From positions 1 to 36,075 of the IMG/VR virus record IMGVR_UViG_3300025012_000211: a stretch of DNA of 36,075 bases. One strand, 5' to 3'. Position numbers and translations under genes: made by a program. The notes under the pieces are model-generated. The model was not told where the DNA came from. It was given only the letters and a program-made list of their open reading frames with translations, and did no database searches. Source of the DNA: a virus. Below, piece after piece: positions 1 through 7,070 of the stretch; within the stretch, counting starts at the first letter, position 1; each line of letters opens with the position of its first letter.

Positions 1-540
1 CTGACCAGCATTCCCGAGGGCTTCAACCCGACCGTTGGCGGCTCTCTCTATCTCAGTAGCCTGACCAGCATTCCCGAGGGCTTCAACCCGACCGTTGGCG
101 GCTATCTCGATCTCAGGAGCCTGACCAGCATTCCCGAGGGCTTCAACCCGACCGTTGGCGGCTCTCTCTATCTCAGTAGCCTGACCAACATTCCCGAGGG
201 CTTCAACCCGACCGTTGGCGGCTATCTCGATCTCAGTAGCCTGACCAGCATTCCCGAGGGCTTCAACCCGACCGTTGGCGGCTCTCTCGATCTCAGGAGC
301 CTGACCAGCATTCCCGAGGGCTTCAACCCGCCCGTTGGCGGCTATCTCGATCTCAGTAGCCTGACCAGCATTCCCGAGGGCTTCAACCCGACCGTTGGCG
401 GCTCTCTCTATCTCAGTAGCCTGACCAGCATTCCCGAGGGCTTCAACCCGACCGTTGGCGGCTATCTCGATCTCAGGAGCCTGACCAACATTCCCGAGGG
501 CTTCAACCCGACCGTTGGCGGCTCTCTCGATCTCAGGAGA
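1..540 (+). repeat. Nine tandem 60-bp LRR-coding repeats
   Basis: Nine head-to-tail 60-bp units start at 1, 61, 121, 181, 241, 301, 361, 421 and 481. Only six columns vary within the unit (8, 31, 44, 49, 57, 60), and every variant changes an amino acid: S/N, T/P, S/Y, Y/D, S/R, S/R. Bases 1-120 are identical to 361-480, so two-unit blocks have been copied. The array continues to the left edge, so the true copy number is unknown. Confidence 0.97.
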
Positions 541-1005
541 AAAACAATTGAGATTGGCAAAAAGACGCCGATAATGAGATGGCAGGATGGCAGGTATTGT
601 TGTGCTGACGGCATATTTGGAGAGGTTATCTCAGAGAGGCGAGTTGACAACGCCAATATTTATAAAATTAAAAAAATCAACAAGGTCGAAGTGTTTTATT
701 TGGTGGAAAAAGACGGGAAAACAGCTCACGTAGATAGTGTCAAGACTGCCATGATTGATCTCCGATTCAAAACTGAAAATCGCGACAAATCGGATTATGA
801 GGATTTGACACCAGACAGCGAACTCAGTTTTGAAGATGCTATTGTGTGCTACCGCGTTATCACTGGTGCATGTTCATTCGGAGTATCTGACTTTCTCAAA
901 AACCGTCTCAGTGTCAATAAAGACAAATATACGGTTGGCGAGATTATTTCTCTTACGGTTGGAGAATACGGTGGTGACACATTTAGGAGATTTTTTGGTT
1001 GTTAG
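1..1005 (+). CDS. Leucine-rich-repeat protein, 5'-truncated by window edge
   Basis: The frame is open from base 1 to the TAG at 1003-1005 (334 codons visible) and the start lies upstream of the window. Residues 1-180 are nine 20-residue leucine-rich repeats of the form LTSIPEGFNPTVGGxLxLxS. Residues about 181-334 form a non-repeat C-terminal domain (GRYCCADGIFGEVIS, ITGACSFGVSDF, ending FRRFFGC). That domain looks like ones I associate with phage LRR proteins, but I know no function for it. There is no signal peptide in the visible part. LRRs are binding scaffolds, so a ligand-binding role is inferred. It lies upstream of recT with a 61-bp gap. An internal ATG at 574 would give only the C-terminal domain, but the continuous repeat frame argues against that start. 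Confidence 0.8.
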   Translation: MTSIPEGFNPTVGGSLYLSSLTSIPEGFNPTVGGYLDLRSLTSIPEGFNPTVGGSLYLSSLTNIPEGFNPTVGGYLDLSSLTSIPEGFNPTVGGSLDLRSLTSIPEGFNPPVGGYLDLSSLTSIPEGFNPTVGGSLYLSSLTSIPEGFNPTVGGYLDLRSLTNIPEGFNPTVGGSLDLRRKTIEIGKKTPIMRWQDGRYCCADGIFGEVISERRVDNANIYKIKKINKVEVFYLVEKDGKTAHVDSVKTAMIDLRFKTENRDKSDYEDLTPDSELSFEDAIVCYRVITGACSFGVSDFLKNRLSVNKDKYTVGEIISLTVGEYGGDTFRRFFGC

Positions 1006-4253: not shown

Positions 4254-4478
4254 ATGGCGAAAAAACTTAATCCAGAATGGGTGGCAAAAATTGAGAGTGA
4301 GATTTTCCAATCACAGCGCATTGACAAGATACTCGATTCGATGGTTGCCATTAAGTGGCTTGTCGCAAAACTGGCTGGGTGCAAAATACCGTACAAAATT
4401 CACAATCTCGGCGCAGGAGTATACAGGATAACCACCAACACTGAAAGCTGTCCATGTTGTGGAGCTAGGCTTAAATGA
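4254..4478 (+). CDS. Small protein with C-terminal CPCC motif
   Basis: A 74-aa protein beginning MAKKLNPEWVAKIESEIF and ending with ESCPCCGARLK, a short two-Cys-pair motif that may bind zinc alone or as a dimer. ATG 4254 has GGAG 8 bases upstream; a TTG at 4224 in the same frame is less convincing. The stop overlaps the ATG of the methyltransferase gene (ATGA), suggesting coupled translation. Function unknown. Confidence 0.6.
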   Translation: MAKKLNPEWVAKIESEIFQSQRIDKILDSMVAIKWLVAKLAGCKIPYKIHNLGAGVYRITTNTESCPCCGARLK

Positions 4479-5218
4479 GTTTGCCAGAGCCATTTTATAA
4501 AGACAAGTTGGTGACTCTTTACTGCGGCGAGTCACTGGCCTTACTGCCATTTCTCCCGAAAGCGGATGCCATAATAACTGATCCTCCATATGGAGAAACA
4601 AGCCTCGATTGGGATAAGTGGCCAGATGGATGGCCAGAGTTGGCGGCAGGAGTGTCAAATCAAATGTGGTGTTTTGGTTCAATGAGGATGTTTCTCGAGA
4701 AAGGAAACCAGTTTTCAAAATGGAATTTCGCCCAAGATATCGTTTGGGAAAAGCATAATGGAAGTAATAGCGCGAATGATAGATTCAGGAGAGTGCACGA
4801 GTCAGCCCTCCATTTTTATCAAGGGAAGTGGGTCGATATTTTCAAAGAACCTCAATTCACCTATGACGCTGTTTCAAAAAAAGTGAAAAGAACAAAAAAC
4901 AGAACTCCACATTGGGGAGACATTGGAGACAGTAGTTATTCGAGTGTTGACGGTGGGCCTAGACTCGCAAGTAGCGTTATTTATTCGAAAAGCTGTCATG
5001 GTTATGCGGTAAACGAAACACAGAAACCAGAGGCGATTATTTTTCCGTTGGTAATGTACAGCGTTCCAGCAGGAGGGCTGCTCGTTGATTTGTTCGCCGG
5101 TTCAGGAACTATGCTCAACGTAGCAAGAAAGGCAGGGCGAATGGCTATCGGCATAGAGAAGAGAGAGTCGCAATGTCGTGAAGCGGTTAAAAGGTTTTCC
5201 CAAGGTTATCTATTTTAA
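4475..5218 (+). CDS. DNA methyltransferase, beta class (N6-adenine or N4-cytosine)
   Basis: A 247-aa S-adenosylmethionine-dependent DNA methyltransferase. The catalytic motif DPPY is at residues 36-39, and the AdoMet-binding motif DLFAGSGTML is near 205-214. This IV-before-I order defines the beta class of the N6_N4_Mtase family. Between them are IVWEKHNGSN and NETQKPEAII, both typical of the family. There is no adjacent restriction gene, so it is probably an orphan that modifies phage DNA against host restriction or for regulation; this is inference. Target specificity cannot be read from sequence. Confidence 0.88.
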   Translation: MSLPEPFYKDKLVTLYCGESLALLPFLPKADAIITDPPYGETSLDWDKWPDGWPELAAGVSNQMWCFGSMRMFLEKGNQFSKWNFAQDIVWEKHNGSNSANDRFRRVHESALHFYQGKWVDIFKEPQFTYDAVSKKVKRTKNRTPHWGDIGDSSYSSVDGGPRLASSVIYSKSCHGYAVNETQKPEAIIFPLVMYSVPAGGLLVDLFAGSGTMLNVARKAGRMAIGIEKRESQCREAVKRFSQGYLF

Positions 5219-6161: not shown

Positions 6162-6245
6162 CAGGCAATAAGCTCCGAATGGCCAGGTGATGTGTCGCTT
6201 GGCCCTAAATCTGTAGGTACGTGGGTCGAAATCAGGAAGAAAGAA

Positions 6246-7070
6246 ATGGGCACAGATATCAGAATTTCAGTCGAGTTTCTTGATCATCCGAAAACCATCA
6301 AACTTGAAAGGAGACTCGGGGTTGATGGTCTCAAAAGCCTCCTCTGTCTTTGGTTATGGAGTCGTGTTAACAGGCCCTGCGGATTACTTCATGGCATGGA
6401 TGCTGAAGATATTGAAATAGCTGCAAAATGGAAAGGATCACCCGGAGAATTCTTTAACGTGGCGTTAACGCTACGTTGGCTTGATGTCAACGCCGCGTTA
6501 ACGGGAAATTCAGAGGTTGAATATTCTCTCCATGATTGGGGTGATCACAACTCGTGGGCTGTTGGATCTGAAGCAAGAAGTGATGCATCACGATTTACCA
6601 GAATGGCAAAAACACACGCAGATTTGTACGAAAAACTAAAAAGTGAAGGTAGAAAGTCAATAACAATGGAAGAATTTCGGGAACTTACCGGCGTTAACGC
6701 AACCTTAACGCGGCGTAAACGTGACGTTAACGCGCCGTTAACCCCTTCTCCTTCTCCTTCTCCTTCTCCTTCTCCTGTTCCTTCTCCAATAGATAGGGGT
6801 AAAAAATTCACACCTCCAACTCTCCCTCAAGTAACGGCTTATTGCCAAGAAAGGAAAAACGGAATCGATCCTGAAAAGTTTATAGCCCACTACGAAACAA
6901 CAGGCTGGATGTACGGCAAGACCAAGATGAAAAATTGGAAGTCTGCAATCATCACTTGGGAGAAAAACCAGAGAGAAAGGGGCGGCAACCGTCAGCCGAA
7001 GACCTTTACGGAAATGAAAGACCAGAAAATACGGCAAGCGATAAACGAATTTGTGGAGGGTGCAGAATGA
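6246..7070 (+). CDS. Replication initiator / replisome organiser (lambda O-like)
   Basis: A 274-aa protein with the build of phage replication initiators. Residues 1-100 are a winged-helix-like N-terminal domain (DIRISVEFLDHPKTIKLERRLG...LLCLWLWSRVN). A Pro-Ser linker (PSPSPSP) spans about 167-181. The C-terminal module at about 188-245 (PPTLPQVTAYCQERKNGIDPEKFIAHYETTGWMYGKTKMKNW) is typical of phage DnaD/DnaT-like replisome organisers. ATG 6246 follows an AGGA; the frame is open to 6192 without a better site. The gene contains two arrays of 11-bp repeats coding the recurring VNAxLT peptides, so the origin may lie inside it as in lambda O. Its stop overlaps the next gene (ATGA). Confidence 0.75.
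   Translation: MGTDIRISVEFLDHPKTIKLERRLGVDGLKSLLCLWLWSRVNRPCGLLHGMDAEDIEIAAKWKGSPGEFFNVALTLRWLDVNAALTGNSEVEYSLHDWGDHNSWAVGSEARSDASRFTRMAKTHADLYEKLKSEGRKSITMEEFRELTGVNATLTRRKRDVNAPLTPSPSPSPSPSPVPSPIDRGKKFTPPTLPQVTAYCQERKNGIDPEKFIAHYETTGWMYGKTKMKNWKSAIITWEKNQRERGGNRQPKTFTEMKDQKIRQAINEFVEGAE
6453..6507 (+). repeat. 11-bp iteron array 1 in the initiator gene
   Basis: Five units at exact 11-bp spacing start at 6453 (TTTAACGTGGC), 6464 (GTTAACGCTAC), 6475 (GTTGGCTTGAT, degenerate), 6486 (GTCAACGCCGC) and 6497 (GTTAACGGGAA). The shared core is GTTAACG. The spacing places each core on the same helix face, as expected for initiator binding sites. Confidence 0.6.
6693..6747 (+). repeat. 11-bp iteron array 2 in the initiator gene
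   Basis: Five consecutive units at 11-bp spacing start at 6693 (GTTAACGCAAC), 6704 (CTTAACGCGGC), 6715 (GTAAACGTGAC), 6726 (GTTAACGCGCC) and 6737 (GTTAACCCCTT). Consensus GTTAACGCGMC. It is followed at once by a pyrimidine tract. It lies mid-gene, between the coding regions for the N- and C-terminal domains, the same place as the iterons of lambda ori in gene O. Confidence 0.65.
6742..6787 (+). other. Pyrimidine tract of CCTTCT hexamers beside the iterons
   Basis: Bases 6742-6776 contain only pyrimidines, mostly CCTTCT hexamers, and resume after one G to 6787. The tract encodes the Pro-Ser linker. A polypurine-polypyrimidine mirror repeat next to iterons could ease strand opening or form a triplex; this is inference. 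A short A+T-rich stretch follows near 6800. Confidence 0.6.

What the first reader, a model, noticed from the sequence alone, without database searches (positions are those of the whole stretch)
1..540. LRR array in which every difference between repeats changes an amino acid
Across nine 60-bp repeats there are six variable columns and all are nonsynonymous; no silent difference exists. Three columns (S/Y, Y/D, S/R) are the x positions of the xLxLx beta-strand, the exposed concave face that binds ligands in LRR proteins, and they are reshuffled between repeats (SYS, YDR, YDS, SDR). Bases 1-120 equal 361-480. This looks like copying by recombination plus selection for binding diversity, similar in principle to modular LRR receptors. 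No reverse transcriptase for a diversity-generating system is visible in the window.
Basis: partly seen in the sequence, partly recalled or inferred. Interest (0 to 1): 0.72.

Follow-up and report, generated by a model that had tools for sequence, protein, structure and literature searches.

The report
Phage leucine-rich repeat array, selected for variety
A virus of bacteria carries the end of a gene for a binding-type repeat protein whose near-identical repeats differ only at amino acids, mostly exposed ones, and relatives with identical flanking sequence carry quite different numbers and orders of repeats, so this looks like a fast-shuffling, selection-driven molecular binder of unknown target.

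Summary
In detail: nine 60-bp LRR units, six variable columns, all amino-acid changing. Alone it is weak (P about 0.16 by chance), and the array starts at contig base 1, so nine is a minimum. Relatives make the case. In 44 arrays of this type the three exposed xLxLx positions have pN/pS 1.83 (bootstrap 1.33-2.73) against 0.33 elsewhere; silent differences do occur in many relatives, so the title is not a general rule. Enterobacterial prophages with a sister 20-residue LRR, including complete E. coli genomes, give an allelic series: flanks identical (0/117 and 0/231 bases) but 4, 6 and 15 units; interior units show 47 changes at exposed positions, 8 elsewhere, 8 silent. The same C-terminal domain is also joined to other repeat types that behave alike. 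No reverse transcriptase was found in 32 records. Best reading: an early intracellular phage binder, diversified by recombination between repeats and kept variable by selection on its exposed face, as in fungal NLR repeats. The target is unknown.

The parts
1..540 (+). LRR array, nine units of 60 bp (20 aa: LTSIPEGFNPTVGG-x-L-x-L-x-S); exposed codons are unit bases 43-45, 49-51 and 55-57; truncated by the contig start
   Evidence: AlphaFold2 model pLDDT about 90-95 over most of this part, LRR matches by VIA-align Z 9-12
1..1005 (+). 5'-truncated gene of the LRR protein (334 aa held; stop at 1003-1005); relatives show that an N-cap of about 30 residues (KEFCKxxxITxxQFxG) and possibly further units are missing
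   Evidence: ORF list; full-length relatives
541..1005 (+). constant C-terminal domain (motif YRVITGACSFG), mixed alpha/beta, no Pfam, NCBIfam, PADLOC or PDB match; relatives in about 150 viral loci, some with other repeat types
   Evidence: dN/dS 0.25 against the nearest relative L080
1067..2230 (+). RecT-family single-strand annealing protein immediately downstream (early recombination module); candidate helper of repeat recombination
   Evidence: Pfam RecT E 1e-11, PHROG 148 E 7e-15
4475..5218 (+). putative DNA methyltransferase (DPPY motif), part of the same early DNA-metabolism stretch
   Evidence: sequence motif only; not tested with a profile

Best explanation
The array is the solenoid of an intracellular, early-expressed phage protein (N-cap, variable LRR array, constant C-terminal domain). 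Homologous recombination between the near-identical 60-bp units (unequal exchange, block duplication, conversion, within an array or between co-infecting phages) keeps the units homogeneous and rapidly changes their number and order. Selection acts against loss of diversity at the three outward-facing residues of each unit (15, 17, 19), so these stay variable, mostly toggling between a few side chains (S/Y/D/W, Y/D, R/S/E/N). Shown: homogeneity, reshuffling on identical flanks (in relatives), pN/pS above 1 at exposed positions, purifying selection elsewhere. Inferred: that the concave face binds a changing protein target of the host or of rival phages (for example a defence factor), and that the neighbouring phage annealing recombinase drives the recombination.
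For: Window array and codes. NG86 on 44 arrays, 260 units: x positions pN/pS 1.83 (bootstrap 1.33-2.73), rest 0.33 (0.25-0.40); in the 25 most homogeneous arrays 5.65 against 0.19. Sister LRR class LPDNLTVGG: 3.99 (2.44-9.56) against 0.50; ASSG 9-residue class: 20 (lower limit 5.7). Silent changes are C/T-rich, exposed changes are not, so mutation bias does not explain the exposed changes. Allelic series in enterobacterial prophages: L161, L162 and E. coli ET846 (L068) have 0/117 and 0/231 flank differences but 6, 4 and 15 units; L163 and L168 also 0 and 0, with 15 versus 2 units; ET791 has 0/231 C-flank differences and 9 units; interior units show 47 exposed, 8 other and 8 silent changes. In ET846 units 1-6 equal units 7-12 with 1 mismatch in 360, and E/R alternates as GAA/CGC, three bases apart with no intermediate, which points to recombination between existing unit types. 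L153 and L156: 5/740 C-flank differences, 20 versus 12 units. Constant parts are under purifying selection: dN/dS 0.25 and 0.10-0.22. Location next to recT, erf, exo or exoX: window, TJE1, Edno5, E. coli, EBPR podovirus 1, L002.
Against: Many relatives of the window's own class have numerous silent differences, and some arrays (L016/L021, 96.5% identical over 5.9 kb) appear static. For the window itself no relative with the same flanks and a complete array was found; its closest relatives L054/L080 and L067 also break in or after the array. Counts over related alleles are not independent, and no site model that allows for recombination was run. No ligand, expression or phenotype is known.
Confidence: 0.72

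Rival explanations
1. Neutral drift with relaxed constraint: the exposed residues are free to vary, the rest is conserved, and concerted evolution keeps the units alike.
For: Exposed positions in LRRs are generally tolerant; silent differences exist in older arrays.
Against: Homogenisation removes silent and replacement variants alike, so relaxed constraint gives pN/pS of at most about 1; observed 1.8 to 20 at exposed positions; 43 exposed against 4 silent changes in enterobacterial alleles where neutral sites predict about 24% exposed (P 2e-22, not corrected for shared descent). The alphabet is narrow (84% Y or D at position 17).
Confidence: 0.08
2. Structural reason without ligand: variation between stacked units avoids like-charge or aromatic ladders, self-association or misfolding of identical repeats.
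For: Exposed residues stack in register in solenoids; two aromatics at positions 15 and 17 of one unit are avoided (0 observed, 8.9 expected in class b; 16 against 23.6 in class a).
Against: Adjacent identical units are as common as expected (lag-1 identity 0.080 against 0.062, 0.085 against 0.086), and runs such as eight SYE units in a row exist (L158). It does not explain why alleles differ so much.
Confidence: 0.12
3. Diversity-generating retroelement or other targeted mutagenesis writes the variable codons.
For: Variable codons are confined to a few positions, as in DGR variable regions.
Against: No RVT_1 match in the window and 31 related records, while the control rang; alternatives are two or three fixed codons, not adenine-directed N; the E/R pair GAA/CGC differs at three bases. 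Records are often fragments and the host could supply the enzyme; template/variable repeat pairs were not sought.
Confidence: 0.03
4. Assembly artefact: the order and number of units in the window come from a misassembled collapse of several strains.
For: Contig starts inside the array and 39 of 61 related loci end in theirs (my count).
Against: The same pattern stands in complete E. coli chromosomes, and two isolates from different hosts and countries (LHM10-1, pig, China; CP52E, human, Thailand) have the same six-unit array.
Confidence: 0.05

Closest known systems
Fungal NLR repeats with high internal conservation (Podospora het-d/het-e/het-r WD40; ANK and TPR in fungal NLRs; PMC12222747, PMC4986451)
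   Same: Nearly identical repeats held by concerted evolution, length polymorphism, hypervariable sites under diversifying selection on the binding face, number and sequence of repeats set allele specificity (read).
   Different: Phage gene, no NACHT or effector domain, LRR and other short repeats instead of WD40/ANK/TPR, repeats only 8-20 residues, target unknown.
Bacterial LPX-type LRR effectors (SspH1, SlrP, IpaH)
   Same: 20-residue LRR solenoid; sequence match SspH1 E 4e-5, structural Z about 9.
   Different: No NEL ligase domain, phage early gene, repeats far more homogeneous, different C-terminal domain.
Diversity-generating retroelement target proteins
   Same: Phage-borne, variable residues confined to an exposed face.
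   Different: No reverse transcriptase found; tandem repeats with fixed codon alternatives instead of adenine-directed mutation.
TAL effector repeats and lamprey VLR modules (from memory)
   Same: Tandem modules identical except for a few specificity residues, reshuffled by recombination.
   Different: TALE repeats are 34-residue helical DNA readers; VLRs are assembled somatically; neither homology nor DNA binding is shown here.

Membership tests
Leucine-rich repeat (LRR) solenoid | Repeated LxxLxL-like pattern folding into a parallel beta solenoid | tested here: met
   Repeats; AlphaFold2 pLDDT 90; aligned to Toll, LGR5, SspH1 LRRs with Z 9-12 over 170-186 residues. No Pfam LRR model reached the threshold.
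NEL-type effectors (SspH/IpaH) | C-terminal NEL ubiquitin ligase domain | tested here: not met
   No Pfam or NCBIfam match for the C-terminal domain of the window protein.
High-internal-conservation repeats of fungal NLR type | Repeats over 85% identical over at least 100 residues, with length polymorphism | tested here: met
   Window units 95% matched; 1 to 17 units on near-identical flanks in relatives.
High-internal-conservation repeats of fungal NLR type | Positive selection at a few exposed repeat positions | tested here: met
   NG86 pN/pS 1.83 to 20 at exposed positions; HyPhy-type site models not run.
High-internal-conservation repeats of fungal NLR type | NACHT/NB-ARC STAND core with effector domain | tested here: not met
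   Full-length relatives consist of N-cap, array and C-terminal domain only.
Diversity-generating retroelement | Reverse transcriptase in the element | tested here: not met
   No RVT_1 in 32 records, controls positive; some records are fragments.
Diversity-generating retroelement | Template repeat/variable repeat pair with adenine-specific differences | not tested
   Not searched for directly.
Phage receptor-binding or tail protein | Gene in the tail/baseplate module | tested here: not met
   Neighbours are recT, exonuclease, helicase, DNA methyltransferase, repressor region.
Known anti-phage defence protein | Match to a PADLOC model | tested here: not met
   No match for three family members.

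The most novel reading that the evidence does not exclude
A widespread, undescribed class of phage proteins in which one constant domain is joined to interchangeable, recombination-shuffled repeat solenoids whose exposed residues follow a small per-repeat code, acting as an evolvable, reverse-transcriptase-free repertoire of intracellular binders, possibly read unit by unit against a linear or repetitive target, as in TAL effectors.
Probability: 0.3. Interest if true: 0.9.

Novelty: new variant of a known kind. Interest (0 to 1): 0.7.

Why it matters
Known programmed diversification in phages is dominated by retroelements acting on receptor-binding proteins. Here an early, cytoplasmic phage protein family appears to gain specificity by shuffling near-identical repeats, the way fungal immune receptors do. 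If true, it marks a common, unannotated counter-defence or competition factor, offers natural combinatorial binder scaffolds, and makes the question of what target drives the diversity testable with existing E. coli prophages. It also shows that metagenome assemblies of viruses often break at these genes, hiding them.

Tried and rejected
The window alone as proof of selection: 6 of 6 nonsynonymous is P about 0.16. Mutation bias towards G/T and A/C transversions: silent sites do not share it. 'Tandem gene families' suggested by 35 places in E. coli ET846: these were internal repeats of one gene. Homology of the enterobacterial and window C-terminal domains, suspected from a shared AGC-like motif: not supported by profile comparison. 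Function of the C-terminal domain from fold search: no significant PDB match; BFVD matches with low E-value are unannotated or oddly named phage proteins. Prior literature: no open paper holds the repeat peptides and no paper on such phage LRR arrays was found in the searches; subscription papers and preprints are not covered. The EBPR podovirus 1 paper says nothing of the repeats. Extending to Enterobacteriaceae genomes by the genome search failed for lack of a centre genome. D-R pairing between the second and third exposed positions is not significant.

Full report
What is there. The window is a complete 36,075-base IMG/VR contig of a phage with a P22-like portal and capsid. Bases 1-540 are nine 60-bp units coding LTSIPEGFNPTVGGxLxLxS; the reading frame runs on to a stop at 1005. 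Six columns vary and all six change the amino acid. The contig starts inside the array, so the gene is cut at its 5' end and nine units is a minimum. Full-length relatives show the missing part: a short N-cap and then the array. The order of the window's units shows two-unit blocks: position 15 alternates S and Y without exception (permutation P 0.008), and bases 1-120 repeat at 361-480.

Is it more than chance. Taken alone, no: with about a quarter of sites silent, six replacement changes out of six has P 0.16. The case rests on relatives. A search of viral contigs gave 61 loci with the same repeat. On 44 distinct arrays (260 units) the three outward positions 15, 17 and 19 have pN/pS 1.83 (bootstrap 1.33-2.73), the others (bar position 20) together 0.33 (0.25-0.40); in the 25 most homogeneous arrays the values are 5.65 and 0.19. 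The silent spectrum is dominated by C/T, while the exposed replacement spectrum has few C/T and many G/T, so the exposed changes do not simply follow the mutation spectrum.

Allelic series. A search of 5,426 complete E. coli genomes with the homologue from Edwardsiella phage Edno5 gave prophages with a sister repeat, LPDNLTVGGSLYLRGTSITA, and viral contigs gave 23 loci. Three alleles (L161, L162, E. coli ET846) share identical N-side (117 bases) and C-side (231 bases) flanks yet have 6, 4 and 15 units in different orders; L163 and L168 likewise share both flanks with 15 and 2 units; ET791 shares the C-side flank exactly and has 9. Over all alleles the interior units show 47 exposed changes, 8 other replacements and 8 silent changes, 4 of them in the distant Edno5. 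ET846 carries a six-unit block twice, 1 mismatch in 360. The exposed pair E/R is written GAA/CGC, three bases apart with no intermediate in those arrays; such a pair points to recombination between existing unit types, not to stepwise mutation inside each array. Two complete genomes from different hosts and countries carry the same six-unit allele, which speaks for the accuracy of the assemblies.

A shared constant domain with other repeats. Relatives of the C-terminal domain of the window protein are found in about 150 viral loci (152 confirmed, 78 read). Upstream of it stand LTSIPEGF-type LRRs, LPDNL-type LRRs, 9-residue ASSGDYAKV repeats, 8-residue SxVEAWGN repeats and several others. In the 9-residue class the changes sit at three columns (D/Y/N, Y/S, K/Q/T; 27 of 30 replacement steps, 5 silent in all) and pN/pS there is 20 with a lower limit of 5.7. 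L153 and L156 differ at 5 of 740 bases after the array but have 20 and 12 units. The 8-residue class rests on three arrays only. Different scaffolds thus show one behaviour. The enterobacterial C-terminal domain could not be shown to be homologous to the window's.

Structure and place. AlphaFold2 gives a confident LRR solenoid followed by a mixed alpha/beta domain (mean pLDDT 90); the LRR part aligns to Toll, LGR5 and SspH1 with Z 9-12. The variable residues are the x of xLxLx, whose leucines point inward, so they lie on the outer side of the strand (from LRR knowledge). The C-terminal domain has no significant PDB match. The gene lies next to annealing recombinases or exonucleases in unrelated phages: RecT in the window, Erf and exonuclease in TJE1, exonuclease VIII and RecT in Edno5, exoX and an ATPase in E. 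coli prophages beside the repressor region, RecT and exo in EBPR podovirus 1. Among 76 downstream neighbours elsewhere the commonest named families are helicases and methyltransferases, with nucleases and annealing proteins among the rest. This argues for an early cytoplasmic protein, not a virion receptor-binding protein.

How it probably works. Recombination between units, perhaps promoted by the adjacent phage recombinase, adds, removes and mixes units and wipes out silent differences. Selection keeps the outward residues different. The simplest reason is binding of a changing partner. Candidates are host defence proteins or proteins of competing phages; nothing here identifies one. A weak hint at packing rules is that two aromatics at the first two exposed positions of a unit are avoided (0 against 8.9 expected in class b), though shared descent of units may contribute.

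Compared with what is known. The nearest match in behaviour is the WD40, ANK and TPR repeats of fungal NLRs, with high internal conservation, length polymorphism and diversifying selection at exposed sites (PMC12222747; PMC4986451). The phage proteins lack the NACHT core and are not members. They are LRR proteins by fold, not NEL effectors, and no retroelement was found. Pfam, NCBIfam, PADLOC and PHROGs give no function. In open literature the repeat peptides are not mentioned.

Limits. Pairs and alleles share ancestry, so the P values are effect sizes rather than exact tests. The window's own array has no complete sister allele. No function has been measured.

Noticed in passing
L080-L157: One C-terminal domain (YRVITGAC motif) is attached to several different tandem-repeat scaffolds in phages, a swap of variable solenoids on a constant domain.
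   Followed up: partly
L181 1-740 (EBPR podovirus 1, JF412294.1): The 36,122-base record starts inside an unannotated LRR-type array (TGITLPTSIGGSLYLSGCDL, Y/D/N variable) upstream of RecT and exo, just like the window.
   Followed up: partly
L065 (PP511318.1, Dulem virus 31): A 35.8-kb genome with tailed-phage-like genes is filed under Microviridae; the taxonomy line looks wrong.
   Followed up: no
L005, L009, L010/L032, L016, L022: Several phages carry two or three paralogues of the LRR gene, tandem or kilobases apart.
   Followed up: no
Xanthomonas plasmids, e.g. CP077786.1: Up to 13 places on one plasmid match the LRR at about 33% identity.
   Followed up: no
L089 array: One unit holds a TAA where neighbours have GAA or AGA, so this copy is broken in mid-array.
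   Followed up: no
window 6689-6787: Short tandem repeats (period 11/22 and 6) inside ORF 6192-7070, coding an SPSPSPSP stretch.
   Followed up: no
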